The notes beneath the pieces are model-generated. The model had not been told where the DNA came from and searched no databases. It saw nothing but the letters and a program-made list of their open reading frames with translations. A DNA stretch of 64,000 bases, from the IMG/VR virus record IMGVR_UViG_3300044699_000100, positions 1-64,000 of that record; one strand, given 5' to 3'. The stretch comes from a virus. Each line of letters begins with the position of its first letter. Position 1 is the first letter of the stretch. Position numbers and translations under genes: made by a program. Shown one piece after another: positions 8,348 to 59,535 of this stretch.

Positions 8348-8822
8348 TTATCCCCCCTCGTGGTCTATTACCTTTGAAGGTAAGTTTTTATCGAAGCTCA
8401 TCTTGTCGCCGCCGCCTAGATTTATGGTAACACTGAAGCCCGCGCCGGTAGACAGACTAGGGCTATCGCTTTTATCCAACCCCGCAATCCTGCTGATCAT
8501 CTTGGCGAGTTCGACCTTCGCGGGGAGTGCCTCGTTCTGGTCGTGCAGGCGCGCGTGTCCTTCTGTAAGCCATTGCTCGATGATGGCTCCAGCCTTGAGC
8601 TTGGTGCGCTCTGCCGTATTGGTTGCCGACTGCCAAGCAAGTATTTCTTGCTCCAATAGTGTCATAAACCTTGGGTTTTGAAGTATAGCGTCCCATTCTT
8701 CTTGGTTTATACTATATAGCTTGCGCACCTTCTTCTGCAGAGAGATGGTCTATCGCTATTTCTCTTGCGAGTTGGACTAGCATTATATCGCGAAGTGGCT
8801 CCTTTACTGCTATAGCGTCCAT
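8348..8822 (-). CDS. Terminase small subunit, frameshifted
   Basis: The main frame 8348-8728 (126 codons) encodes the oligomerisation part (ILAWQSATNTAERTKLKAGA) and a C-terminal beta segment (GFSVTINLGGGD) typical of podovirus TerS. A 36-codon frame at 8712-8822 starts MDAIAVKEPLRDIM with an AGGAGGTAACA ribosome site and ends LAREIAIDHLSAEEGAQ. That matches the usual TerS N-terminal helix, so one frameshift near 8720 splits the gene. The last residues NLPSKVI are encoded by a dispersed palindrome at 8368-8383. TerS binds the packaging site and recruits TerL. Confidence 0.75.
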
Positions 8823-8896: not shown

Positions 8897-11019
8897 ATGG
8901 TCCAGACCCTCCCCCAGCGAGGGGTATTACGTGTTGTGCCCGGTGCGCAACTAGAGGCCCAGCTTCAGGCTGAAGCCGTCGCAAAGGTCCAGCTCGAAAA
9001 ACCTCCTCAACCGGATATGTCTTCGCTGGCTGCGTATGTGCGTGGCCAGTTTGAGATGTTCCAACGCCACCGCAACGACTCACAGTCGGGCTGGACCGAG
9101 CGCATGCTGTCTGCGCTCAGGACATTTAATGGCGTTTACGATAACACCAAGCTCGCTGAAATAAGAAAATTCGGCGGCTCGCAGGTATATGCCAGAATAA
9201 TTGCAATGAAGTGCCGGGGGGCGAATAGCTTACTAAGAGACGTTTATTTAGCGCCCGATAGACCTTGGGCCATCGAAGCACCAGCCGATCCGGATATACC
9301 TGCAGAGGTAATCCAGACCATAATGCAGTTGGTAGAGACCGAGATGCAGAGCTACATGCAGCTAGCTCAGCAGCAGGCTTTACAGGGCGGTGAGACTCCC
9401 TGAACCTCCCAACCCGGCGATGATCCGCGACCGCGTTAACCAGCTTATGGAGGCGGCGCGCAACGCAGAAAAGAAGAACGCGCGCAAGCGCGCGGCACTC
9501 GCGCAAGACAAGATCGAAGAAATATTAGAGACAGGCGGCTTCTACAAAGCCATGGCCGAAGTGCTTATGGACTTACCGTTGTTTCCGTTTGCTTGCTTGA
9601 AAGGGTCCCGTCGTTCGTATTGTACCGGACGTTAACTGGGAACCCGATGCACAAGGCAACGTCCAGCCGACAGTCACTGAAAAACCAAAGATGTTCTGGG
9701 AGCGTGTCTCCCCTTTTGATATTTGGTTTACTCCCGGTGTCTCGGATATCGAGAGCGCCGCCGTAATAGAGCGGACTTCTCTTACACGCGCGGACCTGAA
9801 CGACCTGTTGGACTTGCCGGGGTATGACACTGAGGCAATCAGAAACGTACTCATAGAACACGGGCAGGGCGGTTTGCCGGGTGACTGGGACACGGCAGAC
9901 TCAGAGCGCGCAACCTACGAAAAACGCGAGAACCCGCAGACCAACGCGTCTGGAATGATACACTGCCTTGCGTTTCACGGTAACATCCAAGGGCAAATGC
10001 TTCTGGATCAGGGGTTTCCCGCAGAGCAGATACCTGACCCGGTTAGAGACTACATGGTGCAGCTATGGCTGATCGGACGGCATATCATAAAACTACAACT
10101 GACGCCTTCGCCAAGGAAGCGCCATCCGTACTTTATTACGAGTTTCGAAAAAGTCCCCGGCACTCCCGTTGGCAATGGCTTGCCCGATTTATTGGCAGAT
10201 ATACAAGAAGTCTGCAACGCGGTCCTCAGGTCCTTGGTGAACAACCTCAGTATCGCGTCCGGTCCCCAAGTAGACGTGAACATAGAACGACTGGCTCCGG
10301 GTGAAGACCCCGATGACATGTTTCCGTGGAAGAGATGGAAGACCCTTACCGATCCGATGGCTAATAGTTCTCAGCCAGCCGTAAGATTTTTCCAGCCCAA
10401 CTCCAACGCACAAGAGCTTCTTACCGTCTACAAAGAGTTAAATATCATTGCCGACGACATTAGCGCTATCCCAAAGTACATGTCCGGAAGTGGAACGTCC
10501 GGAGGTGCCGGAAGAACAGCATCCGGCCTAGCCATGCTTATGGGTAACGCGTCCAAGATATTGCAGACTGTTGCAGCGAATGTTGACAGAGACATTATGT
10601 TTGGTGCGCTGCAACAGTTATTCGACATGATCATGCTCACAGACGAGTCGGGGGTGTTCCGTGGCGATGAGAACATTCGTGTCATGGGTGTCAACGTTGC
10701 CATGCAACGTGAGACACAACGTGCTCGTCAGTTGGAGTTCCTTTCTATTACTGCTAACCCGCTGGACGCTCAGATTATTGGCACGCAGGGACGCGCAAAG
10801 GTGCTCAGGACGGTGAGTAACACCATCGGCATGGACGGGGACAGTATTGTCCCGCCTGAGGACGAGTTGGCAAAGATCGAACAACAGCAGAAATTGCTTA
10901 TGCAGCAACAGGCCGCCGAAGCGCAGGGGAGTAAGCCCGGTGAGACTTCTACCGGTGACATGGGTCCGCGTACTAATATTTCTCGCGGGGCTGGTCCTGT
11001 TGGTGGTGGGGCTGGCTAA
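8897..11019 (+). CDS. Portal protein, frameshifted
   Basis: Large podovirus-type portal of about 705 residues, forming the dodecameric DNA gate at one capsid vertex. Pieces are 8897-9403, 9390-9635 and 9691-11019. Recognisable segments include RFFQPNSNAQELLTVYKELN, the flexible SGSGTSGGAGRTASGLAML loop and a Gln-rich C-terminus (EQQQKLLMQQQAAEAQ). Breaks lie near 9400 and 9620. Upstream, 8823-8896 separates it from the divergent terminase genes and includes the AT-rich stretch TATATAGTATT, a possible promoter. Confidence 0.88.
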
Positions 11020-11685: not shown

Positions 11686-12837
11686 ATGGTAGCCAAGGCG
11701 TTTAGTAGTAACATCGTTCCTCCTAGTGACCCCAATGTCGTAGTGCCAGCCGGTGTGAAAGCTGCTGCCGCAAGAGCAGATGCGGCCTTTAAGGCTGCTT
11801 ATCCAGATCAAGTCCCTGCAGAAGCTAATCCTCCCGAGCCTTCTGCAGGAGGACCTGCAGGAGGTTCTAGTTCTGATCCTACGCCACAAGCTCCCAGCCC
11901 GCCACAGGCTGGAGAGCCACAGGTCAGAGAACATGAGCCTCCTGCTCCTTCGGCTCCACAAGAAGCACAGGGAGAAATAAATTGGGAGCACCGCTTCAAC
12001 TCTATGAAGGGGCGGCACGAAAAAGATCAAGAATACATCAAGCAGATGTCGGAGCAGATCAGCAATCTGCAAAACGTGCTTGCTACCATGAATGCTGCAC
12101 CTCAGGCTCCTGTCAGGAACCGTGAGCTGCAGTTTGAGAGTTTGCTATCTGCCGAGGAGGTAAGCGAGTACGGCGAAGAGTTCCTTGGAGTTGTCGGTAA
12201 GAAAGCCCAAGAAGCGGCAACGCCATTAGTGCAAGAGCTTAGGCAAGAAATAGATGCGCTTAAGCAGCAAGTGGGTCAGGTTGGTGGGTCTATTGCCCAA
12301 AACGCTAGAGAGAAAATGCTTGCACAACTCGATGGTACCGGTATGCCATGGAGAGAGGTAAACAAGGACCCAAGATTTTTTCAGTGGCTGGCCTTGCCAG
12401 ACACTTATTCTGGTGCTATACGTCACAATCTGCTGAAAGCTGCGTGGGAGCGGAACGATACCCCTCGTGCGGCAGCTTTCTTTCAAGGCTTCCTCGCTGA
12501 AGAGGCTGCCGTTGATCCCGCTAGGGGGAGCGATCCCCTAGGAAATGGGCCGAACGGTTCCCAAGCCCCCCTTACCTTTGAAGGTAATGGGCGCAACTCT
12601 GGAGCAAGTTCTGGAGTACAGAATGGGAAAGTTCCGCTAGAGTCCTTTGCGGCACCCGGCAGAGCCAAGTCAGCGGCAGGTAACCTCCCCGCTGAGAAGC
12701 CCCTTATCACACGATCCCAGATCACTAATTTCTATGCTCGATGCGCTGCGGGCCTGTACCGTGGCAACGAGCAGGAGAAAAACCGTCTCGAACGTATGAT
12801 ATTCGAGGCGCAGGCTGATGGAAGGATCACGGCTTAA
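11686..12837 (+). CDS. Capsid scaffold-like protein
   Basis: The 383-residue protein has a Pro/Ala-rich disordered N-terminal third. A coiled-coil segment (MKGRHEKDQEYIKQMSEQIS, then LRQEIDALKQQVGQVGGS) and a basic C-terminus (QEKNRLERMIFEAQ) follow. This layout and its place directly before the coat gene fit a scaffolding protein. A dispersed palindrome at 12572-12587 lies inside the gene and encodes PLTFEGN. The ribosome site is AGGGAAGTGAT before ATG at 11686. Confidence 0.75.
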   Translation: MVAKAFSSNIVPPSDPNVVVPAGVKAAAARADAAFKAAYPDQVPAEANPPEPSAGGPAGGSSSDPTPQAPSPPQAGEPQVREHEPPAPSAPQEAQGEINWEHRFNSMKGRHEKDQEYIKQMSEQISNLQNVLATMNAAPQAPVRNRELQFESLLSAEEVSEYGEEFLGVVGKKAQEAATPLVQELRQEIDALKQQVGQVGGSIAQNAREKMLAQLDGTGMPWREVNKDPRFFQWLALPDTYSGAIRHNLLKAAWERNDTPRAAAFFQGFLAEEAAVDPARGSDPLGNGPNGSQAPLTFEGNGRNSGASSGVQNGKVPLESFAAPGRAKSAAGNLPAEKPLITRSQITNFYARCAAGLYRGNEQEKNRLERMIFEAQADGRITA

Positions 12838-15367: not shown

Positions 15368-16709
15368 GATGGTCACCTACAGCGTAGACTCTGATTTTGA
15401 GATCGAACTCGATCAGAACACAGAGGTAACTGTTGTCCTGTCTGCGCGAGGGGCTTCGGGGCCTTCTGGACCTATTGGAGAGCAAGGCCCTCCGGGTCCT
15501 ACTGGTCCACAAGGCCCTCCGGGTCCTACCGGTGCAACGCTTTTAATTATTGGCACGGTCGCTACAGAAGCAGAGCTTCCTCTTACGAATAATACTATAG
15601 GTGATGCTTATACTGTTACTTCGTTCAGTCCGGCGCATTTGTTTACATGTACTGCGTTACCTGCTACATGGGTAGATACAGGCGTATTTCAGGGCGAACC
15701 CGGTCCTGTAGGGGCGACTGGGCCTACAGGAGCGCCGGGAGCAACGGGTGCTACTGGTCCTGCTGGTGCTACCGGTTCAACAGGAGCGACGGGAGCGGCG
15801 GGGGCTACCGGTCCAGCAGGATCGCCGGGAGCGACGGGTGCTACCGGCCCCGCTGGCCCGACTGGCCCTACTGGTCCTGCTGGTGCTACTGGTCCAGCCG
15901 GTGTGGCCGGTCCTGCTGGCCCTACTGGTCCGCAAGGGATCAAGGGTGATACGGGTGCAGGTGTTCGTGTTTTAGGCTCAGTTGCTGATTTGGTTAACTG
16001 TCCCACGACCGGTAATGCGGTGGGTGACGGTTATATTCTTACATCTTATACGCCTGATCACTTGGCTGTTTGCACGGCTCTTCCCAATACATGGACTGAC
16101 GTTGGTGTATTTCAGGGACCGACTGGAGCTACTGGCACGACAGGCCCTACGGGGGCAACTGGCGCGACCGGTCCCGCTGGTCCCACAGGTCCTACAGGGC
16201 CTATTGGCCCCGCCGGTCCCGGCGTTATTCCCGGTGTTATGCCGACAGATGCTGGTAAGTTTCTTCGTAAAGGACCGACCAGCACTACGGATACGGCTTG
16301 GATAACTATAAACAAAACAACGATTGGTCTTGAAAACGTCGATAATACGTCTGACGCCAACAAGCCAATTTCTACAGCTACAGCTACAGCGCTAGGTAAC
16401 AAAGCCGATAAAGCCAATACAGTTACCGGTCTTGGGTTAGTTACCATTACTGGTGGGACGCTGGGTGGTAATAATATTATTAACGTAGCGAAGGCTACGG
16501 TCCCTGAGCAGCAGGCTGGTACGCGCGATGACGTGGCGATGACGCCACTCGGGGCAGAGAACCATGCTGACGCTTGGGCTAAGCGTGGCATAGCTGGTGT
16601 GGTTGTTGGGGCTCCTGCTGTAGCTTATCCTCTTACGGTTGGCGGGTACGTTGGCGGGCTTGGCAACTACGTTGCAGCGCATACGTTTGAGGCGAAAGTA
16701 CTGCTGTAG
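15360..16709 (+). CDS. Collagen-like tail fibre protein
   Basis: The 449-residue protein has a short beta N-terminus and three Gly-X-Y blocks rich in [10 protein letters not shown]. These are separated by two copies of a globular module of about 52 residues ([11 protein letters not shown] in the first, [11 protein letters not shown] in the second, each ending VDTGVFQG or TDVGVFQG). The C-terminus begins [18 protein letters not shown], a phage fibre motif. It should form a trimeric stalk. The Gly-X-Y DNA is repetitive and prone to slippage or recombination. A second collagen-like fibre lies at 22801. Confidence 0.8.
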
Positions 16710-24576: not shown

Positions 24577-25092
24577 AAAATTGAAGGAGGAGAAGAGGGA
24601 GAGGGAGAGGGAGAGGAAAAGAAAAAATTATCGGCAATGGCGGGTTGCTAACCTAGAAAAAGCTAAAGAGTATAACCGTGAACGGTATGCTGCTAATATA
24701 GATAAGGTTAAAGAGTATAATCGTAAATGGTATGCCGCCAACCCAGAAAAGGCTAAAGAGTTAAAGCGTAAATGGTATGCCGCTAACCCAGAAAAGGTTA
24801 AAGAGCTAAGCATAAATGGTATGCCGCCAATTCAGAGAATGAACGTAGTAAATTTTTTAAAAGAAAATATGGCATAACTTTAGAAGAACGCGATGCAATG
24901 TTCTTAGCACAAGGTTAGCGTATGTGCGGCGTGTGGTACCGATAAACCCGGTAGTAGGGGTTGGCATATCGACCACTGCCATATAACAAAAAGGTTCGAG
25001 GCATAGTCTGTCACAATTGTAATATTGCCTTAGGGATGGTGAAAGACAGCGTAGAAACTCTTTATAAGCTAATCGCTTACCTTCAAAGGTAA
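24545..25092 (+). CDS. Recombination endonuclease VII-like HNH protein with tandem repeats, frameshifted
   Basis: It starts MTLEEVPAFIEKLKEEKRER and carries about four repeats of the type EKAKEYNRKWYAANP (about 24655-24815). A frame change near 24810 leads to [14 protein letters not shown], then a zinc/HNH core (AACGTDKPGSRGWHIDHCH, further breaks near 24915 and 24985) and VRGIVCHNCNIALGM. T4 endonuclease VII resolves branched DNA; phage relatives are often free-standing. The stop codon and last residues YLQR come from the palindrome at 25077-25092. A relative is at 43122-43640. Confidence 0.7.
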
Positions 25093-28649: not shown

Positions 28650-31600
28650 AATGCCAAGCATTTATGAGTCCCCCACTTATAACAAAGGCCCGTCAAGGGA
28701 CTGGTGCTGTATTATGGAGCGATTATCTCAAGCAGGCGGGGGCCGGTCTTGTTGGCGATGTGGCTGCCTCTGTGCCTGCTGCTACGCGTTATGCCGCAGA
28801 AGCTTTGCCGCAGAGCGAGTTTAGCGATCTTGTTGCAGGGTCAAGTCATTATCTGGAAGATAAATTAAACGAATGGGGCGAGGACATAGCGAGCGGTCTT
28901 AGCCCAACCGCTCAGAGCCGGATCGCGGCTGAGTTTGCTTCTCCTGAATATTGGGCGCATCCGTTCAGTAGCACAGCTTTAACAGCTACTCGTTCTGCGC
29001 CGTCCATGGCTGCTGCAGCGGCAGCGACGTTGCTCACTGGCGGCGGCACTGCTGGCGTAGCTGCGCTTATGGGGGCCGGTGGCTTCCTGAGTGCTGGCGA
29101 GACAGTCGATGAGATGTACGAAGCAACGGACAGAATGTCCAGCGCTGAACTGGCAGAAAATAACCCACTTTATGCTGGACTGCTTGAAGATGGCCTTAGT
29201 GAGGCACAGGCCCGTAGAGAATTTAACAGTACTATGCTTGGCCTTAAGCCGGTCCTCTTGGGTGCGTTTGGCGGGCTGACCACGCTTATAGGTCCGGAAG
29301 CGCAAGTACTTCGTAATTTCACCAAAGCAGGCATCAGGGAGGCTGCTACAGGCGGTATAGCTAAGCGTGTTGGTAAGTCAGCAGGCGAAGCATTCGTTGG
29401 CGAGACAGCGGAGACTGGGGCTGAAGATATTACGGCCCAGCAGGGGGCCGTTGATGTAGGACTACAGCCAGAGATAAATTTAGGTCAAACCGCTCGAAGC
29501 TCTCTGTATGGCGGTGTCATAGGTGCTGTGCTGGGTGCTCCCGGAGGCATTCGCTCGCACACCAACGCCAACCCTCGTCCGCAGCCTGTTAACCCGCCAG
29601 CAGCCGTTGTCTCGAACGCTGTAAAGCCCAATCAAGCTGCCGTGCCAGCGAGGGCGTCTAATACCAATGCTTCTCCACCCGTTGTACCTACGCCAACCAA
29701 GCGGACTGGGCCTACGTCCAGAGCCGCCACTATTCCCGGAGCGACAGGCGATGCATACAAGAAGCCCAAGCAAGCCCCCGGCGCACCACGCCGCCCAAGT
29801 TCAGGTGCAGTGGGAACAGTTGGAACTCCCGTTACCGCTGCCACCGCAACGACCGCCGAGGCCACTCCTAGTACCTTGGCCGGGATAGCTCCCCCTGCCC
29901 CACAGAGCCCCGTAGGCGCGGTTTCGGGGGTAGGGGCTACTCCTACCCCCTCTCCGGCCCAAGTCGCGCCTACGGGGCTCGTAGGGGGTCAAGGAGTGAC
30001 TTCTGCTCCCGATCCCACTGGTATCGTCGTTGGGACGACAGAGGCCGCCGCATTACCCAAGCCACGTACACCGTCTCAGGTTCAGCAAGCCACTGGCGTG
30101 CCTTATGCACAGGCGCGTGCCGTAGCTGAACGGGAGGGTGATACTTCAGGTGTTCCTGCCCCTGCTGCCCCTGCCCCTGCTGCCCCCTGCCCCTGCTGCC
30201 CCTGCACCTGCTGCTGTGCTGCCAGCCCCGACTCCAACACCAACCCCCGCCCAAACACCCGGTGAAGGTTTTGGGGCTGGCACCATAGCAGCACGTGTAG
30301 CTCCTCCCCAAGAGACTGTGCCTATAGGAGAGCCACGTCCTTCGGCTCTAGCTCCGGGTACTGTAGAGCAACCGGTCGGTATACCTGCTGCTCCCGCTCC
30401 TGCTGCTCCCGCTCCTGCTGCTCCCGCTCCTGCTGCTCCCGCTCCTGCTGCTCCCGCTCCTGCTGCTCCCGCTCCTGCTGCTCCCGCTCCTGTACCGGCA
30501 CCGGCACCGAAAGCTCGCGCCGCTCCTGTCCCCAAGGCACCTAAAGAAAATCCAAATGTTGCGCGTGCAGTAAAACATGGCGTGCCACCGCTTGAGGGTA
30601 AGCACACAGGTCGTAATACAAAACTTTACGACGATGCTGATGCTGCACAAGCATTACTCGATCAACGCCCGGCTAGTCCTGCAATCCCAGCTACAGAAGA
30701 AGGGATCGACGCACTCGCAACCGAGATAGGCGGTATTGTAAAGACTGCCGCAGGGCAGGGCGTGGAGCTTCGTGGCAAGGTTGGTTTTCCGACTACGCCC
30801 CATTCGCTTGTGTGGCTACGGGAAGCGCAGGAGTTTGTCAGCAGGCTTAGTGGCAAAAAGAAAATCGAGCTTGCCGACAAGCAAGCGGCTGCTATTCGGT
30901 TTCTTGATCGTGAACTTAGAATAAGAAAGGGTGAAGGAAATAGCGTTAAAGCCGAGCGCAATGCCGAAGGCGAAGCTGCTATGGCGGCGCGCGGCAAGGG
31001 CAAAGGCAAGGTAACAGAACAAACTCAAGCAGGAGATATTGTTGCTGGCCCCGCAAAGCTGAATGTTCCTACTGAGAAACGCGAAGTTGTTCAGGCGGGG
31101 GGCTTAATAAAGAGGAAAGACGTAGCGAAAGCTTTTACACGTGAAGTTTCTCCTGAGGCGCGTGCAGAGATAGAAGCTCGCACTGCAGCCGAAAGCATAG
31201 AAGCTGTTAAGAAAAAAGCGGCTGAAGCTGCTAAGCCCAAGCCCTTACCTCCAACGGTAGCTGAGAAGGTAGAAGCTACGAAAGCTAAGACCGCAGCGAA
31301 GAAACAAGCTCAGAAGGAGGCATTACCTTCGAAGGTAAGGGAGAAAAAACCTCTTACGGTAAAAGTTACTCCTGAAGCCGTAGCAAAAGCTAAAGCCGTA
31401 GCTGAAGCCAAGAAGGCACCGCCTAAGCCTTCCGGCAAAGCCGCGCTTGGGAGCGAACTGGCAAAGGTTGAGCCTAACCCCAGCAACGCGCAGATTGAAG
31501 CCGATAATGCTTCCAAGGGGCATATCCCCCTTGAAGGCATGCAGGTTGCTGTCTCTACTGCAGCGAAGACCGAACGGCATCTCGTGTTACCGAGTGGCTC

Positions 31601-43657: not shown

Positions 43658-45225
43658 TTATATAAGAAGCGACTGCGTTGCTTCCTCAAAAAGGTTTAGC
43701 AACTCGTTCTGTATATTCTGCTTGTTCTGCAGTAGCTGATAAATTCTTCGCTCTACAGGCGTTCCCTGAAACATGATGTACAACTGTCTGCGGCCTTGGC
43801 CTACTCGCCTTATTCTCATATTAGCCTGTTCAAAAGTCTCCAAACTGGTAATAGGCGAGAACCAGACAATTGTAGAAGCATTAGTCAGGGTCAAACCGTG
43901 AGCGAGACACTGGGGGTGTGCGGCTAAGACCTTGTATTTACTGGTATTTTGGAACAGGTTGAACGCTTCTCCTCTATCGTTCGCAGAAATATCTCCAGAA
44001 ACAGTAGTATGATCTATTCCCTCATTCTTGAGCGCGTGAGAGATACCAGCAAGAGCATGCTTAAATGGAGCAAACACTAACAATTTGTGATCGCTTGAAA
44101 GTACCACGTCTATCAACGCTTCGATGCGTTTGTCATTGTCTAGCGTTACCGTTGTTTTATCCGCTGCATACACATACCCCGTAGAAATCTGTAATAATTT
44201 AGAAAGCGCAGCACCTGCGTTTGCTGCAGTGATTTCTTTGTTCTGCAGTGCAGTGTAACAATGTCGCGCCATTTCCTTATAAATTTTAGCCTGCGTTGGA
44301 CCTAGCTCGATGTCCATCGTGCGGTAGATCGCCTCCGGTAGCTCCACCACGTCGTCCAACGTGAACCTCACGGCAGGCTGCAGAACCTTAAACGCTCGTT
44401 CTGCAGCATCCGGCTTGGGTATCCACTTAAAGGTGTTGACGCGTAGCATCAACTCGTCGCGAAACCCCTTGAAGTATTTTGGGACCGTATTGGGGGTTAT
44501 AATACTTGCAATTGCCCACGCATCGGTGGGGAGGGTAGGGGATGGGTGCACCAGTCATTCCTACTACCCATTCAAACCTATTAGCTAGTGATCTCATAGT
44601 CTTAGTACGTTGTGACTGTCCATTTCGATACACAGCCGCTTCATCAAGGGCCAGCATGTTAATGTCTTTACGCGAGCTAAGCGCGTCTAGTACTGTTTTT
44701 ACGCCATCATGGTTAATAATGTATATATCAGCGTCTTCCTTAAGAGCTTGCAAACGCTTCTCTCTTGTGCCGTGTAGTACTACGGCTTTCCTATGTGGCA
44801 GCGTAGCGAAAACTTCCCGATGCCAAGTAAAACGAAGGGTTGATAACGGGGCAACGACTAGTAACTTGTCTACGATCTTATTGAGTTTTAAGTAGTCAAA
44901 ACTCCAGAGCAACGATCTCGTTTTCCAACGCCCATACCTGACAAATTATACGCTCGGTTATTCATTGTAATCATAGCCGCCATTTTCTTTTGGCTTCGAA
45001 TGGCGGCTGATTAACTGGGTGTGGCCAGCTATAATTAGTTAGTATTGGAGACGGCACGTCGTAGTTAAGTTTCCGCAGCATAAAGCTCTCGGCTGGTTTG
45101 TGGGGCACCAGCGTATAGCCATTCATCTTCTGAGCAGTGGGGAAAAGGTTCTCCACCGCAGGCGTAGTAGGAACACCCAACATGCGGTGCTTGGCACTTA
45201 CCTTTACAGGTAATAGGTGGGTCAT
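43658..45225 (-). CDS. SNF2/SF2-type DNA helicase, frameshifted
   Basis: Pieces are 44971-45225 (N-terminus), 44427-44912 and 43658-44551, about 520 residues. Walker A lies in GMGVG-KTRSLL across a break near 44925. Motif Ia is VVAPLSTLRFTWHREVF, motif II LALDEAAVYRNG, motif III GMTGAPIP, motif V near LTNASTIVWFSP and motif VI ANMRIRRVGQGRR. It probably remodels or unwinds replication forks, or acts with the adjacent nucleases. A palindrome at 45198-45213 encodes LLPVKV near the start. Confidence 0.82.
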
Positions 45226-48490: not shown

Positions 48491-50384
48491 TTACTTGGCT
48501 TCGCCATAGCTGTCCCCTACCCCAGTTTCTGCCATAAGAGGCAGAGCTTCGCCCCAACTAGGGCGTCTAGTCATCTCCTCCACTAAGATTGATTTTACCG
48601 TGTCTACGTGTTCTTCTTTGACTACGTAGCAGTTTTCGTCGTGTGCTTGCTGCGCCAGCCTATAAGGATGTATCCGCTGTTGGATGCGCAGTGCGGCATC
48701 AAATACCAGTATCCTGTCCAGATACTGCACGATATTTTCCAGCAACTTCCCGCCATAGAGGTACTTAACTTTACCTCCGAAGGTAAACATCCACCCCCCT
48801 CTCTGGGTATTGGTCTTGGGCTCGTAGTGCAAATTATGGTAATACATCTTGAGCCTGCCGGGCATGCGTATTACGCCCTTTTTGATAACAACTGGACCAA
48901 GCACCATGAGATCGTCATCAGCGCCATTAGCTAAAATATTAATGGCGTTGTTATCTAAAACATCCCACGTCGCAGCAATCTTAAGATATCTCCGTCGATA
49001 AGTTGATACTGTATCTATGGCTGCCGTATCAGCTAGCTCAATAGCTTTTCCAAGCTGATTTTGAGATTGTATTTTTACTTGTCCTTGATATTTTCTCCAT
49101 CCCATACCGAACCCAAGCCCTAGGATTGCAGTCTTCGATATGAAGCGAATTTCTGGATCGTCTTTTTTGTTAATAGGTCTACCGTAAAGGACCGAGCCAA
49201 AGTTAGCATATACGTCTTCACCTCGCTCAAACTGCTCCAGCAAGGATGTCTCCCCTGCAAGAAACGCCACTAATCTTGCTTCGATCTGCGAACTATCCAC
49301 GTAATTACTTTATGGCCCGGAGGAGCCCTTAGTGACTTTCTGAGTTCTCCACCCCTAGGCATATTCTGCACGTTCATTTTCCAGTCGCCACCCAGCCTGT
49401 GCGTATGTGCGCCAGAAAACTTAAGCGGCATGGGCATTGCCAGATTATAACCTGCAGAGGTAAGGGGCCACGATAAGTTACTAATATTTATGAACCGCTG
49501 CGTGCGCGTTTCTTCGATAGTGCTCTTAGCGCCCAACCGTGCAGCGACAAGCGCCTGCACCATCGGGTTCTCGTGTTCTTCCAACTCAAGAAATTCAGCA
49601 TCAGTCTTGGCAAACGCATAGCGTTCCAAGCCAGTGGTTGGAGATATCTTTCGTGGAGGCTCAACCCCTTGGGCTCTTAGCATGTTCGCAAATGTTTCGT
49701 CTTGTCGGATGGCGGTATTGTCAGAGCCGACCATTGCCAGCGTTTGCTCTTTTGCCTGCAGCACAGTGCGCAAATGTGTGTACAATGTATCTTGCCCCAG
49801 CACAAAATTTGGCTGCGTTGCCATACGCATGATCATATCGAGTATCGGCAACTCCATAAGCGGAAACTCGTTGGAGACTACTAGCTGCTTGAATATCCCG
49901 GCGCAAAACTCAACGTCGTCCAGCGCATAAGCCACATACTGATCGTACAAACCCGCGGCTTTTATCATCTGCAGGTTCATGCCCTTTACGTTCGTGAGTG
50001 CGCTCTTCCCCTTGACGCCCAGATTTAAATACTTTGCTCCCATCTCCAATGACAGGGAAGAAAGCTTATAACTTAATGTTTGCACGTGAAACACTGAGGG
50101 TGCAGCACGCCAGCTTCGGCACAAAGTTATAGCGCCAAGCAAAGATACACCCATCAAAGAGAAAATTATGGCTGCAGAGCAGCAGGTTATTAGGGTTTAA
50201 CCTTTGAAGGTAACCCGGTAGCTGGTCGCCGTCGATCCAGTACGGCTTGCCAAACAAGCCCTCTTTGAAAAGCGCAGCCGTTAGCTTCAAAGCGTGGGTC
50301 TAAAATATATTCAGCCGGGCTCATTCGCTTAAGCGAGTACTCGTCGGTGTAAAACGTTTCGAAGTCGGCAAACAGTAGCTTCAT
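48491..50384 (-). CDS. Family A DNA polymerase with 3'-5' exonuclease, frameshifted
   Basis: Replicates the phage genome. Pieces are 50190-50384, 50066-50290, 49270-50157 and 48491-49300, about 630 residues. Exo I lies in MKLLFADFETFYTDEYSL. Exo II is in LLLCSHNFLFDG and Exo III around YDQYVAYALDDV. Polymerase motif A is VDSSQIEARLVAFLAG (after a break near 49300), the finger helix lies near KTAILGLGFGMGWRKYQG, and motif C is QQAHDENCYVV. Breaks also lie near 50270 and 50080. Palindromes at 48771 and 50198 are in frame. Confidence 0.88.
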
Positions 50385-51835: not shown

Positions 51836-51920
51836 CACGTTACCTCCGAAGGTAATGGCATTTCATGCGTGAACAGTGGGCGGGTGTCTGTTCTATATCT
51901 AAAAGTTTCAGACCAAACCC

Positions 51921-52311
51921 TCACCTCACCATCTGCAAACAACGCCGCAACAGGGATATCCGTGCGGGTTCGCCCTTCTTGAACAACACGGCAAGCTCAG
52001 CTTTCTTGGCCTTTGCGTCCATGTCGTCAATGCGCACCATGCTCCATGTCGCGTTCTTGCGCCGCCATACGAGCTTGGGATAAGCTTTTTGCACTTGCTC
52101 CTTGGACGAGAAAAAACCGCTGAAACACGCCGTGGACCGTCCACACGCCCCACCACGGCTCGCCGCCGCCAACGAGACACGTTGCATAGTGAGTAGCACG
52201 CAAGCGTCCCGTGTCTTTGTTTACAGTAGCAAGAGCATATACTCCTCTATATGCAAGTATAGCTCCGAGTGGCGGAACGACTAAACTTTCTGTGTTTGGG
52301 CTATCTGTCAT
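51921..52311 (-). CDS. Hypothetical protein beside the repeat array, frameshifted
   Basis: It starts MTDSPNTESLVVPPLGAILA, has GGGEPWWGVWTVHGVFQRFF, then changes frame near 52110 to SKEQVQKAYPKLVWRRKNAT and ends with a basic helix at 51921. About 130 residues. The ribosome site lies in the palindrome at 52315-52330, which directly touches the array. No family is recognised; association with the TIGR-like locus is positional only. Confidence 0.5.
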
Positions 52312-52330
52312 GTGTTACCTCTGAAGGTTA

Positions 52331-53602
52331 TGGTTCGCTCCATTTGCTTGGTACTCTCCTCTGGGCTGGCTCGCTCTCTAATCATGGCACTCTCGGCAGC
52401 GTTGGCTCGCTCTTTTTTCTTGGTGCTCTCAGGTCCCATGGCTCACTCTTTTTGCGTGGTTCTCTCGGCGTTCATGGTTCGCTCATTACTTTTGGTGCTC
52501 TCACTCGTTATGGCTCGCTCACTTTAGGTGGTGCTCTCTCGTAAGATGGCTCGCTCACTGAATGTGGTTCTCTCTTGTTGAGTGGCTCGCTCTCGTGGTT
52601 TGGTACTCTCTGAGAGGGTGGCTCGCTCTATTTGTATGGTGCTCTCGCAGGCGATGGCTCACTCATTCGATAAGGTTCTCTCGGCATCCATGGTTCGCTC
52701 ACCGAATGTGGTCCGCTCTCTTAGTAGGGCTCGCTCAACTGATATGGCGCTCTCTGATTGGCTGGCTCGCTCTTCTTTGAGGGTACTCTCACTGCACAGG
52801 GCTCGCTCACGTCGGTTGGTTCTCTCACACTGAGTGGCTCGCTCATTCCACGTGGTACTCTCTCCTTAAATGACTCGCTCTTCTTGCTTGTTCTCTCGGT
52901 ATTGGTGGCTCGCTCCGTTGGTTTGGTTCTCTCATTCTTCATGGCTCGCTTAGATTTTCTGGTGCTCTCGCTTCACGTGGCTCGCTCATATAGAGTGGTG
53001 CTCTCTACTGGGATGGCTCGCTCTATTGGTTTGGTACTCTCCGACGTTGTGGCTCGCACGTTTGACATGGTTCTCTCGCGTTCTATGGCTCGCTCCATAT
53101 TTTTGGTGCCCTCACTGTATATGGGCTCGCTCACTCCATATGGCACTCTCGGCTATTCCGGCTCGCTCCGTTGTTCCGGTACTCTCTATTCCAATGGCTC
53201 GTTCCGGATTTGTGGTACCCTCATCTGCTTTGACTCACTCTCGGTACTTGGTACCCTCGCTGCCTATGGCTCGCTCGCCAATCGTGGTGCTCTCAGAGCA
53301 GGTGGCTCGCTCATTCTACATGATACCCTCAGGTCCATTGGCTCGCTTATCATTTGTGGTTCTCTCTTGTCGAATGGCTCGCTCTAGGCCGACATGGTAC
53401 TCTCTGCTCCAATGGCTCGCTCACCATATATGGTTCTCTCGTGCCTAATGACTCGCTCGTATTGGATGGTGCTCTCCTAGCAAGTGGCTCGCTCACTCCA
53501 TATGGCACTCTCGGCTATTCCGGCTCGCTCGTTTTACATGGTACTCTCAATTCTTTTGGCTCGCTCATCGATTATGGTACCCTCTACCGAAGTGGCTTAC
53601 TG
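52331..53602. repeat. TIGR-like array 1: 71 alternating 10-bp repeats with 8-bp spacers
   Basis: Repeat A (TGGCTCGCTC) and repeat B (TGGTnCTCTC, n variable) alternate without exception through 70 units, each followed by 8 variable bases; a degenerate final A (TGGCTTACTG) ends at 53602. The double unit is 36 bp. Irregularities: one spacer of 10 bases after the A repeat in the region of 53380, a B repeat lacking one base near 52890, and one extra G at 53123. Spacers 45-46 and 65-66 are duplicated. Open frames on both strands arise because 18 is a multiple of three. The layout matches TIGR arrays whose processed guide RNAs are about 36 nt with two short spacers. Confidence 0.92.
53488..53530. 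repeat. Duplicated spacer block in array 1
   Basis: The stretch 53486-53530 is identical to 53124-53168: two spacers with repeats A-B-A. Between them lie 19 other units, so the copy arose by internal recombination or re-use of a spacer pair. Confidence 0.85.
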
Positions 53603-54430
53603 CTTAACCTCCGGAGGTAATGGGCGTTCGATCTTGTGCGCGTGCCCAAGGTGCGCGATAGGATACGGCAGAGGAGGGGCTACACCAAACTTCTGAACAT
53701 ACATTTCCTCATGCAGATGTGCGAGAAACAGCTTCACTGCATATCTGCGGGCACGTGCATGGATATGCGCCGGGGGCAATCTCCCTTGGATGTAAGCTTT
53801 GTAAGCGTCTGTCGCCTTGTTGTAGTTACGCTTAGCGAGGATATCAGCCGCTTGCTGTGCAAAGTCCCCGTTGTTGTTTTTGGTAGTCTCCTGCTCTTTG
53901 CGAGTCTTATAAATTACGCCATAGAAGCAACCATCCGGTTGCAGTTCTTCACAAAACTCTCGCCAGCTTTCCAGCATAGTGTTTAAGATCGGCGTTATGC
54001 GGTCGTTTCGTGTTCTTGGCCCAGACCTGAGTGGGGTTCAGTCCCGCAAAGGCCCAGATGTGCCCAACCGTCGGAGCTTTGGTAATATCGATATGGGCAA
54101 GCAAGCCTGCACTAATCACTGGCCCAATACCGACAATACTTATCAACCACTTACCGACTGGATGCCCTCTACGAAAGCTGCAAGCGCAGCTTTGGTTTGC
54201 TCTTCGAGGCGCTCGCTTTGCGTGGTCAAGTGTTCCAGTGTCTCGTGCGGCTCCGTAATCATCGAACGCACTTGCCCTGCGGCACGGATGCGACTGCGCT
54301 GCATGGCATAGTAGTTATCAACGAGAAACTTAGCCTCCGCTGCAGACATGGTAGCTGCAGCTTTACGCAAGTCACGGGAGAGCTTTACAACGCTCGTCCA
54401 GATTTCGGGGTCAGTTCCCATATCGCTCAT
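53597..54430 (-). CDS. Tas-like protein (IS110 C-terminal/Nop-related), frameshifted, no nuclease domain
   Basis: Pieces 54143-54430, 53949-54146 and 53597-53977 join into about 278 residues. The N-terminal half is a coiled coil (EPHETLEHLTTQSERLEEQT). The core SIVGIGPVISAGLLAHID, then VGHIWAFAGLNPTQVWAKNT and KRPHNADLKH, is the helix-hairpin-helix region of IS110 transposases. The C-terminus has PPAHIHARARRYAVKLFLAH and PYPIAHLGHAHKIERP. No DEDD/RuvC or HNH residues precede it, so it fits the nuclease-less TasA type of TIGR-Tas. It lies between two arrays; its TAA stop overlaps the last repeat of array 1, and its ribosome site is the palindrome at 54434-54449. Confidence 0.8.
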
Positions 54431-54433
54431 TTG

Positions 54434-54449
54434 TTACCTCTGAAGGTTA
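54434..54449 (-). promoter_or_regulatory. Palindromic ribosome site between array 2 and the Tas gene
   Basis: TTACCTCTGAAGGTTA lies 4 bases from the start codon at 54430 and 4 bases from the first repeat of array 2. Read on the minus strand AGAGGTAAC is the Shine-Dalgarno, folded in a hairpin. It separates guide array and protein if both come from one transcript. Confidence 0.7.
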
Positions 54450-54453
54450 GGGT

Positions 54454-54823
54454 TGGCTCACTCAACTTTAATGGTTCTCTCGTCTCGCTTGGTTCGCTCG
54501 TCTATTGTGGTGCTCTCTGGGCAAATGGCTTGCTCCATTCTCATGGCGCTATCAAGTCGTTTGGCTCGCTCCACCCTTTGGTTCTCTCTCTTGGCTGGGC
54601 TCGCTCGTTCGATATGGTTCTCTCGGTACTCAGGGCTCGCTCGTCTCTGATGGTACTCTCTTCCAAGATGGCTCGCTTGCTTTGCTTGGTTCTCTTCGGC
54701 TTGAATGGCTCGCTCCCAGTTTATGGTTCTCTCTTGGCCAATGGCTCGCTCGTCTGTTGTGGTGCACTCAACTGACATGGCTCGCTTCGGCTCTCTGGTT
54801 CTCTCTGTTGGCTTGGCTCGCTT
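54454..54823. repeat. TIGR-like array 2: 21 alternating repeats
   Basis: The same A (TGGCTCGCTC) and B (TGGTnCTCTC) repeats alternate through 21 units, beginning and ending with A, so ten complete pairs plus a terminal A. Spacers are 8 bases except one of 7 and one of 9. No spacer is obviously shared with array 1. It lies upstream of the Tas-like gene on the minus strand and overlaps the 3' end of the open frame at 54721-55056. Confidence 0.92.
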
Positions 54824-55273: not shown

Positions 55274-56689
55274 CTAGTCCCTCGCCTGCTTGGGTATCAT
55301 CACCACGTCTCCCCACGGATACTCCTTCTTGTCGATGCTCGCCCAGATCATGGGGCACTCGGGCTTATAGCTAGGAAAGTCCCCATGCCCGTCCGTGAGA
55401 TACACAATACAATCCGGCCTTAAGTCGTTATCAGCCACATAGTCGAACACCGGCTTAAAGCTTGTGCCTCCCCCACCCGGAGCGCCCTTGGCACGTATGA
55501 CATAGAGATCGCTCGGGCTATCGCAGATGTCCGTGCGATGCAGCGCAGCGTCACACCAGCAGAGATGTAGTTCTCTCGGCTTCACGTCCTCCAGTATCCC
55601 ACCTACTTCTGCGAGGAACATGTCCACTTCTTTTGAGGAGATCGATCCTGACGTGTCTACGCCCACGACAACCGTGCCAGCACCGTAGCCCGATCTTGCG
55701 GGAGTGTAGATGTCCCTGACGATCAGCCTGCGATCCGGCTTCTTCCAGTCATACGATCCGGTGCCGAGCTTCCGGGCAAAGAGCGCCCTGATTTTGTCCT
55801 TCCAGTCAACGGCAGGGACAAGGACTTCTTGGAACACACGCTCCAACCCCGCAGGCATCTTACCTTGTAACCTTTGAAGGTTAGCTGCTGCAGCGATATG
55901 CATGTCCCATTCGGCTTGGTTACGCTCCTTTGCTGCCGTCTGTGGCTCCTTACCCTTGGAAGCACCCGGTTTCATATGCTCGTCGAAGCTCTTGCCCCTT
56001 GGACCCCTTGGCTGGGTAGGCGGCTCGTTAGAAGGCACATTGCCGGGGCTGGGAGGCCCCTTGGGAGGGTTAGTTCCCGGAGGAGGTGGTTGGCTACCCG
56101 GCCCTGAAGGCCCCTGTCCTTGCCCGGCTCCTTGCCCGTCCTTGGGGGGACGCTTAGGCGGTGGCGGCGGTGGAAACATCTTATACAGCTTACGATACGT
56201 GTCCACGCCAGTATCAGCATCGGTGGCGATGCTTATGTCATACAGCCAGTCCTTGTTGAACTTACCCACTTGCGCTTTGACTAGAATTGCGTTGATCACC
56301 AAGTCCAGCGCAATGTTCATAAGCTCAGGGTTCCACGGCAGTGACTTGCCGTCGGGATAAGTTATCTTCCCGGCTCGCTCATACTTATGTCCTGCAACTA
56401 TGTGGTTGAGGATATTATGTAATATCTCGTGAGCGAGAATGAATACGCGTTCCAGCAGTTCATACTTGAAGAACACGTCGGGATTGATAAGTATGCTGCA
56501 CCCGTCCGTAGCTGCAGCGTTGGGAAACTCTTTCGTAAACACTGCACCGTGCTTGCCGTTACTCAGCAGTGTAATAAAAATATGCGTGAACGCTGGGCAG
56601 TGCCATGAGAGTGCAACGCGCGTGTCGCCCCAAAGACGCTCCTGCTCCTTGGTCAGCTCGACTTGCTTGATGTCCGTTGAGATGTGCAT
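55274..56689 (-). CDS. DUF2201-type metallopeptidase with VWA domain
   Basis: The 471-residue protein has FILAHEILHNILNHIVAGHK near residue 90 (HExxH zinc site), a Pro/Gly-rich linker, then a VWA-like C-terminus with MIDAS VVVGVDTSGSIS, and LTDGHGDFP near the end. In N4-like phages such proteins pair with a MoxR ATPase, here at 58420-59535 with four to five small genes between. The pair may remodel a host complex. The palindrome at 55867-55882 is in frame (NLQRLQG). Confidence 0.8.
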   Translation of the reverse strand: MHISTDIKQVELTKEQERLWGDTRVALSWHCPAFTHIFITLLSNGKHGAVFTKEFPNAAATDGCSILINPDVFFKYELLERVFILAHEILHNILNHIVAGHKYERAGKITYPDGKSLPWNPELMNIALDLVINAILVKAQVGKFNKDWLYDISIATDADTGVDTYRKLYKMFPPPPPPKRPPKDGQGAGQGQGPSGPGSQPPPPGTNPPKGPPSPGNVPSNEPPTQPRGPRGKSFDEHMKPGASKGKEPQTAAKERNQAEWDMHIAAAANLQRLQGKMPAGLERVFQEVLVPAVDWKDKIRALFARKLGTGSYDWKKPDRRLIVRDIYTPARSGYGAGTVVVGVDTSGSISSKEVDMFLAEVGGILEDVKPRELHLCWCDAALHRTDICDSPSDLYVIRAKGAPGGGGTSFKPVFDYVADNDLRPDCIVYLTDGHGDFPSYKPECPMIWASIDKKEYPWGDVVMIPKQARD

Positions 56690-56766
56690 GGGTGGGTTAC
56701 CTTTCTAGGTTGTTACCTCTGAAGGTTATTTAACTTCAGAGCACAGCTTAGCTGTGCTCTGTGTGG

Positions 56767-57009
56767 TTAGATTTCGTTGTAGATGTCCTCATCGGGGTTA
56801 GCGTGCCTGTGGTCGTATAATTGGGCGCGTGCACACAGGCCGAGTAACGCAACGCTGAACTCAAAGCCCCAGTGGTCCCTGTCACTTGGTATCCAGTTAA
56901 GCTCCAAATCAAAGAGCGCACCTTTACGCCAGTAAAGCTGGACTTCTACGGACTTGTTCTTCGCAACCGTCCAGTCACGGTCGAAGATGTCATGAGATGT
57001 TATAAGCAT
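56767..57009 (-). CDS. Hypothetical protein (80 aa)
   Basis: It starts MLITSHDIFDRDWTVAKNKS and includes WGFEFSVALLGLCARAQLYD with an acidic end. A hairpin GAGCACAGC/GCTGTGCTC lies just downstream at about 56738-56760. Proteins of this pattern occur in phages; function unknown. Confidence 0.55.
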   Translation of the reverse strand: MLITSHDIFDRDWTVAKNKSVEVQLYWRKGALFDLELNWIPSDRDHWGFEFSVALLGLCARAQLYDHRHANPDEDIYNEI

Positions 57010-57023
57010 TGTAGGTTACCTTT

Positions 57024-57437
57024 CTAGGTTATGGGTTGTTCGATGCCGTGTTCCTGCAGCAGATGATGGATCAACGCCAGCGCATGCAGCAGACCGTCGC
57101 AGTTTACTCTTACTGTTCCTAATTTGTGTAACATTCTTCCTGATTTATGTGGCCATAAGTCAGTAAGCTGCGACCCCTCACCTGCTCTAGGATGGCGTAG
57201 TCTAGAAGGTTCTAAACTACGCCATATAAAGAAGGTATAGTCTGGCGAAATACCGATCTCCAGCTTGCCATCCCAACAAGCACGATAAGCACCACTCGCC
57301 ATCGTATGCTCGTTAGGGAAGCCGAACTTAAGCTCGGCATGTTTATTTTGCACGTATTCACTCCATCCTTTTATCCATGTCTCCATATCTTCTGGAGACC
57401 AAGGCCCAAAAAATTCATTAGAGGTACTCGTCATCAT
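57024..57437 (-). CDS. Hypothetical protein (137 aa)
   Basis: The start at 57437 gives MMTSTSNEFFGPWSPEDMET; later KFGFPNEHTMASGAYRACWD and a possible frame change near 57230 (SRLRHPRAGEG). The frame extends upstream to 57497, but the start inside the previous gene is preferred because the upper extension lies opposite conserved residues of that gene. Function unknown. Confidence 0.45.
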   Translation of the reverse strand: MMTSTSNEFFGPWSPEDMETWIKGWSEYVQNKHAELKFGFPNEHTMASGAYRACWDGKLEIGISPDYTFFIWRSLEPSRLRHPRAGEGSQLTDLWPHKSGRMLHKLGTVRVNCDGLLHALALIHHLLQEHGIEQPIT

Positions 57438-57768
57438 GTCCGCATGTAGGGCAAGGTCCATCCGTGTGAATTTCCGCAAGATCAACCTCCCTGTCACCGT
57501 TGATGTTGTCAGATATAGTCATGCTAAGCTTCGGACGTGAACGGTCCTGAAGTAGCATTGCAGTCGATAGCAGTCCCTTGGACATGCGCGCTGCAGCAAC
57601 CTTCAGAAGCTCCTCCTTGTCTGCTCTCAGAGCATCGTCAAAGTTGACTTGCAGTTCGATGAAGTATCTTGTCGCGGCCATGCTTTCTTCCTTCCATAGT
57701 TGGAGTTGACGATAGAGGTCCCGTGGTAGGTTAGGCGGCACAGGTATATGTGTAGCTTTACTACCCAT
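57418..57768 (-). CDS. Zinc-ribbon-ended helical protein (116 aa)
   Basis: It starts MGSKATHIPVPPNLPRDLYR with the palindrome (57770-57785) as ribosome site. The C-terminus CPTCGHDDEYL has one CxxC. The middle is helical (DALRADKEELLKVAAARMSK). It overlaps the next gene by 20 bases. Function unknown. Confidence 0.55.
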   Translation of the reverse strand: MGSKATHIPVPPNLPRDLYRQLQLWKEESMAATRYFIELQVNFDDALRADKEELLKVAAARMSKGLLSTAMLLQDRSRPKLSMTISDNINGDREVDLAEIHTDGPCPTCGHDDEYL

Positions 57769-57769
57769 A

Positions 57770-58336
57770 TTACCTCCGAAGGTTACCTGCCGGAAGCAAC
57801 CCCAAGCATATCCTGAACACAGGGTCGTTCTCACATTTGTGCAGCCAGTCGTCCTTAAGCTCGATGCCCTCGGGACCGACGAAGTAGAACTCCCACTTAC
57901 GTTCATGCGCGATGTGCTTGATAATGGGATCGGCAGTGTTATCGCTTACCATGAGCAAGCCAGCGACAACGTTCTTGAGCTTGGGAGCTTTCGGCACATT
58001 CAGTATCCAATATTGGCACCAGCCTAACTTGCTACCGTCTCCTAGATAACCTTCATTTTGGACCAGATGAATGAAAGGCCGGTCCAGCGAAGTGTTAATG
58101 CTTTTAAGATACTTGAGCTTGCTCTCTCCAAGCCGGTTGACCCAATTCTCATCTTCGTAACGCTTGACAACGGCAATGCCAGTGTCGAGAAACTTTCTGG
58201 TCTCGTTGGTAAGTGTTACAAGAAAGTTCTCGGCATCGCTACGATAGTTGCGCGCACGTTCCTCATATTGATGGATGGCGCTCCAAACTTTACTGCGTGC
58301 TTTTTCCAAGGCTTTTATCCCGTTTATGTCTGTCAT
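57770..58336 (-). CDS. Hypothetical protein (188 aa)
   Basis: It starts MTDINGIKALEKARSKVWSA, continues with a long helical part, then SKLGWCQYWILNVPKAPKLK and KWEFYFVGPEGIELKDDW. The pattern resembles phage proteins of unknown function between VWA and MoxR genes. The palindrome at 57770-57785 overlaps its last codons and provides the next ribosome site. Confidence 0.5.
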   Translation of the reverse strand: MTDINGIKALEKARSKVWSAIHQYEERARNYRSDAENFLVTLTNETRKFLDTGIAVVKRYEDENWVNRLGESKLKYLKSINTSLDRPFIHLVQNEGYLGDGSKLGWCQYWILNVPKAPKLKNVVAGLLMVSDNTADPIIKHIAHERKWEFYFVGPEGIELKDDWLHKCENDPVFRICLGLLPAGNLRR

Positions 58337-58419
58337 GGTGGGTGGCTCTCTTGCTTTCTGGTTGGCTGGTTAGGGGTTACCCCCCGGATCAAGTCCGAGG
58401 GGGTTATTACCTTCGAAGG

Positions 58420-59535
58420 TTAGTTCCGGTTGATCTCGTTCATGAGGTGAGCGTTCGTCATCGCCCACTTATGGAACGCGGGAGCCATAGCCAGCTTATA
58501 GTCACGCTTGACTGCAGCCCTAGCGAACGTCGCCGCAAACTCCTTCGGCAGACGGTTGATGTATTTGATCACGGCTTCCGCGTCCTTGGCGTTCACCTCA
58601 TGTGCGAGATTATAGCACACGAGCATCACGGCATCCGGTTTGTCGGACACTTTCACTCCCATCGGGTCCTTGATGATGTCCGCATAGTCCGGTATCTCAT
58701 TCTCCAGACGAATGAAATTCATCATCTGCCCACAGGCTTCCGGCCCGATACGCCCGGAAATCTCAGTAAGCGCCGCATTGTCGTCAACCGGCATACCCAT
58801 CTGTATGAGAAGCTGGATATACTTGTCAGCTTTCACCAGCGAGCGTGGCGTGCAATACGGCCCTTGCTTCTTGGGCAGTTCGTCAGGCCAGACAATCTGC
58901 GGGTTCTTGCTCGCGAAGATGATGGTCGTGCCTCTGACATGGTTGTCTTCAGCCCAGTCAACCCAGCTACGCAAGTCCCCAGTGATCTCGATCTGGCAAC
59001 GGCGGTTGATCAGATGATCAAGCTCCTTCGTTGATCCCGAACGATGCTCTGCAGTGTTGCCCGCCATCCACACCACCCAATTCGGCGGCAAGCGATGCGG
59101 CCCAAAGCGCCCTGAGTGCGCACCTTCTCCCAGAACTTTCTTGATATCGACATCGGCCTTGTCGGCCTCATCGATAAAGATAATACCACCGTCCGGGTAT
59201 TCATCCAGAAACTTCCCGCCCTCGTCAATGGACGTGGCATCGGTCTTCCAGAAGAAGGGGTTAGTGAACACCATGATGGAACGCTCGGCAGTTGTGCCAT
59301 CCGGGGCGGATGAATGCGTGTGCTTCGGTATGCCAAAGCCCACGGTATCGCCCGGCGTGAGATTGCCACCGTTGATCACGACCAGCCCGATATGCTTGCC
59401 GAGTTTCTTCTTGATAACTTCGGGAGCTTGCTCGACTGTCGTCGTCTTGCCGAGACCGGGAGGTGACGTGAAATAGTAACAGTCCCCACTCAAGAAATAA
59501 ATGGGGAGGCGTGCAAGGATATCTCGTAGGATCAT
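58420..59535 (-). CDS. MoxR-like AAA+ ATPase
   Basis: The 371-residue protein has Walker A FTSPPGLGKTTTVEQ, Walker B GIIFIDEADKADVDI and sensor-1 VVWMAGNTAEHRSG with Arg finger HLINRRCQIEIT. It works as an AAA+ ring with the VWA-domain metallopeptidase at 55274-56689, a pair known from N4-like phages and implicated in host takeover or replication. A good promoter lies at 59654-59682, and the palindrome at 59567-59582 lies between them. Confidence 0.85.
   Translation of the reverse strand: MILRDILARLPIYFLSGDCYYFTSPPGLGKTTTVEQAPEVIKKKLGKHIGLVVINGGNLTPGDTVGFGIPKHTHSSAPDGTTAERSIMVFTNPFFWKTDATSIDEGGKFLDEYPDGGIIFIDEADKADVDIKKVLGEGAHSGRFGPHRLPPNWVVWMAGNTAEHRSGSTKELDHLINRRCQIEITGDLRSWVDWAEDNHVRGTTIIFASKNPQIVWPDELPKKQGPYCTPRSLVKADKYIQLLIQMGMPVDDNAALTEISGRIGPEACGQMMNFIRLENEIPDYADIIKDPMGVKVSDKPDAVMLVCYNLAHEVNAKDAEAVIKYINRLPKEFAATFARAAVKRDYKLAMAPAFHKWAMTNAHLMNEINRN

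What the first reader, a model, noticed from the sequence alone, without database searches (positions are those of the whole stretch)
52331..54823. Phage-borne TIGR-Tas-like RNA-guided system
Two arrays of alternating 10-bp repeats and 8-bp spacers (double unit of 36 bp) flank a gene related to IS110 C-terminal/Nop domains. Established knowledge: TIGR-Tas systems use dual-spacer guide RNAs of about 36 nt bound by Tas proteins, including nuclease-less forms, and some are phage-encoded. Seen here: exact periodicity, strict A/B alternation, and a Tas-like protein whose stop codon lies in the last repeat. Inference: array 2, Tas and array 1 form one minus-strand transcript, and the complex binds DNA of competing phages, plasmids or the host.
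Basis: partly seen in the sequence, partly recalled or inferred. Interest (0 to 1): 0.97.

Follow-up and report, generated by a model that had tools for sequence, protein, structure and literature searches.

The report
Phage TIGR-Tas RNA-guided DNA-binding locus
This phage carries a long TIGR-Tas guide array and its Tas protein, a recently described type of RNA-guided DNA-targeting system; related phages swap whole guide units quickly, which hints at an ongoing arms race with other mobile DNA.

Summary
On the minus strand, an array of 10 units (54823-54454), a Tas gene (54430-53597) and an array of 35 units (53597-52331) lie head to tail. Edge repeat GAGCGAGCCA and loop repeat GAGAGNACCA alternate without exception over 91 repeats, separated by 8-nt spacers (unit 36 nt). 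The Tas family matches solved TIGR TasR (E 6.8e-24) and TasH (8e-16) far better than IS110 recombinases, and its predicted fold has TasR and TasH as best matches. It has no nuclease domain, so it is TasA-type. Of 80 relatives, 78 have an array on the tas strand. The window copy has two frameshifts; other conserved genes of this record are broken too, so indel errors are likely. Its edge repeat is nearly identical to that of the characterised Salicola phage array. It is a new member of a known kind. New here: phages with 94-99% identical tas differ in most spacers, mainly by exchange of whole A/B units; 1,554 spacer pairs show no targets in their own phage genomes; one lysogen has an exact 16-nt match in the excisionase-like gene of a second, co-resident prophage (one case, suggestive only).

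The parts
54454..54823 (-). TIGR array 2 (upstream of tas): 11 edge and 10 loop repeats, 10 units of about 36 nt
53597..54430 (-). tas gene (TasA-type, nuclease-less Nop/IS110-C-terminal protein) in three frame pieces: 54143-54430, 53949-54146 (open further upstream) and 53597-53977
   Evidence: frameshifts probably sequence errors
52331..53597 (-). TIGR array 1 (downstream of tas): 35 units; begins with a truncated edge repeat that holds the tas stop codon, ends with edge repeat GAGCGAACCA at 52340-52331
53495..53530 (-). duplicated unit (spacer A GAATAGCC, spacer B TATGGAGT), copy 1
53133..53168 (-). duplicated unit, copy 2 (362 nt further on)
54434..54449 (.). palindrome holding the Shine-Dalgarno sequence of tas, between the end of array 2 and the tas ATG
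52315..52330 (.). palindrome holding the Shine-Dalgarno sequence of the next gene (52027-52311, minus strand), abutting the end of array 1

Best explanation
A phage-encoded TIGR-TasA locus. Array 2, tas and array 1 are transcribed together on the minus strand (inferred). Tas binds the array RNA, which is cut within the edge repeats into about 45 tigRNAs of 36 nt, each carrying spacers A and B (established for three other Tas proteins in PMC12045711, inferred here). A Tas dimer with one tigRNA opens and binds a 16-bp DNA site whose two halves pair with spacer A on one strand and spacer B on the other (inferred from TasR and TasH). Lacking a nuclease, it would act by binding and bending DNA, most likely silencing genes or replication of competing mobile elements rather than cutting (inferred; weakest step, about 0.4 on its own). 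The guide set is changed by gain, loss and replacement of whole A/B units (shown in relatives).
For: Array anatomy. Tas homology: PF02371 on the middle piece; all three pieces hit consecutive parts of phrog_4285; family profile hits TasR 9mty 6.8e-24, TasH 21kl 8.3e-16, IS621 only 1.8e-5; model pLDDT 89.8 has TasR and TasH as the ten best PDB matches, IS621 next at 6e-3. Linkage: 78 of 80 relatives have a dual-repeat array, always on the tas strand, 60 downstream only, 14 upstream only, 4 on both sides. The Salicola phage CGphi29 array, the SpTIGR of the paper, has edge AAGCGAGCCA, loop AAGACAACCA and 8-nt spacers. Units turn over as A/B pairs: discordance within units 39/332 versus across units 99/333. 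No self-targets: 0 exact and 1 one-mismatch self hit for 1,554 pairs.
Against: Tas as sequenced is broken by two frameshifts. No rho-independent terminator ends the arrays, unlike typical TIGR arrays. Repeats start with GA, not the UG of TasR. No target is known for any window spacer. The element-competition role rests on turnover, on absence of self-targets and on one candidate target.
Confidence: 0.88

Rival explanations
1. A decayed TIGR locus: tas is a true pseudogene and the arrays are relics.
For: Two frameshifts in tas, while the 80 relatives have an open frame.
Against: The record has several other frame breaks in essential genes (DNA polymerase, helicase, portal region), so indel errors are general. 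The frames compensate and the protein stays conserved along its whole length. The repeats are well preserved over 91 copies.
Confidence: 0.12
2. An IS110-family transposase remnant beside unrelated repeats.
For: Pfam and PHROG call the gene Transposase_20 or transposase.
Against: No N-terminal DEDD domain. TasR and TasH match many orders of magnitude better than IS621. The array stays linked and co-oriented in 78 of 80 relatives.
Confidence: 0.01
3. The arrays code for a hexapeptide-repeat protein (18 nt = 6 codons).
For: Long open frames run through the arrays, up to 209 aa on the plus strand.
Against: No frame spans the whole of array 1. Spacers of 7, 9 and 10 nt shift the frame. The variable base of the loop repeat falls on codon position 1, not 3, of the open plus-strand frame.
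Confidence: 0.01
4. The system regulates the phage's own genes.
For: Nuclease-less effector in the same operon area as phage genes.
Against: Window: 0 matches with 0 or 1 mismatch and 3 with 2 mismatches in its own 64 kb, against 4.7 expected from re-paired spacers. All arrays: 0 exact and 1 one-mismatch self match for 1,554 pairs, against 2 in the re-paired control.
Confidence: 0.05
5. The system targets host chromosomal genes, for example defence genes.
For: Host of this phage unknown, so not excluded.
Against: In three lysogens the only exact match in the host genome lies in another prophage; only 13 units were tested, some without gaps.
Confidence: 0.2

Closest known systems
TIGR-TasH of Salicola phage CGphi29 (SpTIGR, HQ634153; PMC12045711)
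   Same: Edge repeat AAGCGAGCCA (window GAGCGAGCCA), loop AAGACAACCA (window GAGAGNACCA), 8-nt spacers, 36-nt unit, phage-borne, homologous Nop part
   Different: SpTasH carries an N-terminal HNH nuclease; the window Tas has none. One array there, 45 units on both sides of tas here
TIGR-TasA (solo Nop domain, for example Flavonifractor plautii; PMC12045711)
   Same: Nuclease-less Tas with dual-repeat arrays; the commonest TIGR type
   Different: Reference sequence not compared here; 8-nt rather than 9-nt spacers; more units than the usual 5-15
TIGR-TasR (PDB 9mty)
   Same: Homologous fold, dual-repeat guide, CCA at the end of both repeats
   Different: TasR has an N-terminal RuvC nuclease, 9-nt spacers and UG at repeat starts
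IS110/IS621 bridge-RNA recombinases
   Same: Distant homology of the C-terminal domain
   Different: DEDD catalytic domain and bridge RNA, no guide array
Stem-loop TIGR arrays (described in PMC12045711), seen here in cluster-A mycobacteriophages
   Same: Distant Tas homologue (about 29% identity) next to paired spacers
   Different: Hairpin units with 9-nt spacers instead of edge repeats

Membership tests
TIGR-Tas | Nop-domain Tas protein related to TasA/TasR/TasH | tested here: met
   (profile and fold of the relatives' family; the window pieces align to it)
TIGR-Tas | Two alternating 8-12 nt repeats separated by about 9-nt spacers | tested here: met
   10-nt repeats, 8-nt spacers as in SpTIGR; 91 of 91 alternate
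TIGR-Tas | Array next to tas | tested here: met
   both sides in the window; 78 of 80 relatives
TIGR-Tas | Array starts with a truncated edge repeat | tested here: met
   array 1 starts with GTAAGCCA holding the tas stop; a first repeat starting 5 nt before the end of the tas ORF recurs in 12 relatives
[quoted passage not shown]
   each array ends with a full edge repeat next to the Shine-Dalgarno sequence of the following gene; no minus-strand terminator there. The paper calls this typical, not required
[quoted passage not shown]
   both end CCA and start GA; L050-type arrays start GTG in both, L170 ends CCG in both, as expected for a symmetric dimer
TIGR-Tas | Processing to 36-nt tigRNA bound by Tas | not testable with these tools
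   needs small-RNA sequencing
TIGR-Tas | Tandem-spacer DNA targeting | not testable with these tools
   only indirect support: spacers exchange as A/B pairs
TasA subtype | No N-terminal nuclease domain | tested here: met
   profile 41-188 aligns to TasR 123-268; about 270 aa; no HNH or RuvC hit
IS110 transposase | N-terminal DEDD RuvC-like catalytic domain | tested here: not met
Functional TIGR-Tas (this copy) | Intact tas reading frame | tested here: not met
   two frameshifts as sequenced; probably errors

The most novel reading that the evidence does not exclude
TIGR-TasA arrays of phages are actively re-armed guide sets: whole A/B units are gained, lost and swapped inside the array much faster than tas evolves, and the guides are aimed at other mobile elements in the same cell. 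In the lysogen KBS 96 this would mean Tas blocking the excisionase-like gene of a rival prophage or capsid-bearing satellite. The exchange part is shown by comparison; the aim is one case.
Probability: 0.25. Interest if true: 0.82.

Novelty: new member of a known kind. Interest (0 to 1): 0.5.

Why it matters
TIGR-Tas was described in 2025, and its authors list natural targets, the role of nuclease-less TasA and the way arrays gain spacers as open questions (PMC12045711). The clade around this phage gives comparative material for the last one (unit-wise turnover between near-identical phages) and a candidate case for the first two (an isolate lysogen with an exact match in a second prophage). 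The test would be simple in a laboratory strain.

Tried and rejected
Self-targets in the window and in relatives' contigs, four pairing geometries, wrong-phase and re-paired controls: all at chance. Targets among related phages: at chance. Targets of two units in IMG/VR: about 20 hits each, about what I expect by chance for 16 nt, none from the array's own study. Targets of Halomonas NO4 and Propionivibrio lysogens in their own genomes: none for the units tested. Exact 18-nt targets of 13 units read by eye from SarFire, Euphoria and Morrissey hairpins among 50,697 phage records: none (a sensitivity control with two units per query was found, but the three-unit queries had no control of their own). 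The KBS 96 spacer pair in IMG/VR: 94 hits, background. A first array parser without a threshold gave nonsense and was replaced (then 40). Neighbouring small ORFs: no family.

Full report
What is there. On the minus strand of 52331-54823 two arrays flank a gene. Parsing gives 91 repeats that alternate without exception between GAGCGAGCCA (edge) and GAGAGNACCA (loop), with 8-nt spacers (five are 7, 9 or 10 nt), 45 full units: 10 before the gene and 35 after it. The chain score is 266 against at most 6.2 in 100 shuffles. One unit (GAATAGCC/TATGGAGT) occurs twice. The stop codon of the gene lies in the truncated edge repeat that opens array 1, and each array ends within a few bases of the Shine-Dalgarno sequence of the next gene. 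No minus-strand terminator separates them.

The protein. The gene is in three frame pieces. The middle piece hits Transposase_20, and all three hit consecutive parts of PHROG 4285, a 277-aa family labelled transposase. A scan of IMG/VR with the C-terminal piece found 124 relatives, 80 kept. These align over the full protein in one open frame, except one truncated at its contig end. A profile of 41 relatives hits TasR 9mty at 6.8e-24 and TasH at 8.3e-16, and IS621 at only 1.8e-5. The model of relative L016 (pLDDT 89.8) has TasR and TasH as its ten best PDB matches. No nuclease domain is present, so it is TasA-type. Homologues of other relatives' proteins change frame at five or more other places in the window, so the tas frameshifts are probably indel errors of the record.

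Array linkage. Of 80 relatives, 78 have a dual-repeat array on the tas strand, none on the other strand; 60 downstream only, 14 upstream only, 4 both; median 15.5 units, up to 62. So the 45 units and the two-sided layout of the window are at the upper end of, but inside, the family range. The array of Salicola phage CGphi29, used as SpTIGR in PMC12045711, has edge AAGCGAGCCA, loop AAGACAACCA and 8-nt spacers. In L050-type arrays both repeats start GTG, in L170 both end CCG, the edge-loop covariation that the paper reports.

Unit turnover. Phages whose tas genes are 94-99% identical share few spacers, for example 1 of 29 for L030/L031 and 10 of 44 for L066/L070. Aligned arrays show blocks replaced as whole units. 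Sharing status differs within a unit (A,B) in 39 of 332 pairs but across units (B,A) in 99 of 333; 47 of 70 changed blocks start at a unit boundary and 55 of 70 change by an even number of spacers (pairs of loci are not independent, and with exact matches only the contrast is 37/332 versus 70/333). Spacers held in place between shared neighbours differ by 1.7%. Guides are thus changed by unit exchange rather than by drift. Across 1,000 units spacers are near random in composition, with no A-B covariation.

Targets. With the geometry worked out from the paper (spacer A followed by the reverse complement of spacer B, gap 0-2), the window units have no match with 0 or 1 mismatch in its own 64 kb. 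For 1,554 loop-centred pairs from all loci there were 0 exact and 1 one-mismatch self matches, and matches among relatives were at the level of wrong-phase and re-paired controls. In genomes, Tas loci were found in isolates and MAGs. In Acidobacteriaceae KBS 96 one of six units (TAAAAGCA/TTCGATTC) matches its own 6.7-Mb scaffold exactly with gap 0 at 6329962-6329977. I calculate a chance of about 0.06 for such a match with six units, and about 0.08 over all lysogen tests made; one exact match also turned up in an unrelated genome. The site lies in an 86-codon ORF with HTH_17 and excisionase matches, beside an integrase, head protease and major head genes, that is, a second prophage or satellite. 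A second unit matches the same element with 2 mismatches. The location makes this worth testing, but it is one case found after looking.

Verdict. A genuine TIGR-TasA locus on a phage, new member of a known kind. The DNA-binding mechanism is taken from solved relatives. The role in competition between mobile elements is the best guess, supported by fast unit exchange, lack of self-targets and one candidate target.

Noticed in passing
whole window, e.g. 8368-8383, 12572-12587, 48771-48786, 51840-51855, 52315-52330, 54434-54449: 58 dispersed copies of a palindrome TTACCTNNNNAGGTAA (at most 2 mismatches; shuffles give 2), many holding the Shine-Dalgarno sequence a few bases before an ATG. Only two near matches in 36 Tas-bearing relatives' contigs, but several copies in phages sharing this one's structural and replication genes (L329, L359, L375). 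The phage encodes a protein weakly similar to N4-type virion RNA polymerase, so hairpin promoters or repressor sites are possible.
   Followed up: partly
L218:9962-9977 (KBS 96 scaffold 6329962-6329977): Exact target-like match of a TIGR unit of the same lysogen (L166) inside the excisionase-like gene of a second prophage or satellite.
   Followed up: partly
L319, L320, L323: Cluster-A Mycobacterium phages (74 records matched; SarFire gp72, Euphoria gp70) and Gordonia phage Morrissey gp42, annotated as transposase, DNA-binding or hypothetical, look like Tas genes with hairpin-type arrays of paired 9-nt spacers: a tractable laboratory model.
   Followed up: partly
L322:4600-5000: Microcystis phage Mvi-JY20 has a dual-repeat TIGR array (edge ATGCGAGCC, loop ACGAAACCC, 9-nt spacers) next to an unannotated Tas.
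   Followed up: partly
PHROG 4285: The PHROG family labelled transposase matches Tas proteins over their full length; the label seems wrong.
   Followed up: partly
9300-9600, 44500-45000, 49300-50270: Conserved genes (portal region, helicase, DNA polymerase) are broken by frame changes, suggesting indel errors in the record.
   Followed up: partly
55274-59535: DUF2201 VWA-like gene and AAA ATPase gene near the TIGR locus.
   Followed up: no
15471-16240, 24647-24830, 30155-30509: Tandem repeats inside predicted genes: collagen-like, 45-bp units and 15-bp CCTGCTGCTCCCGCT units.
   Followed up: no
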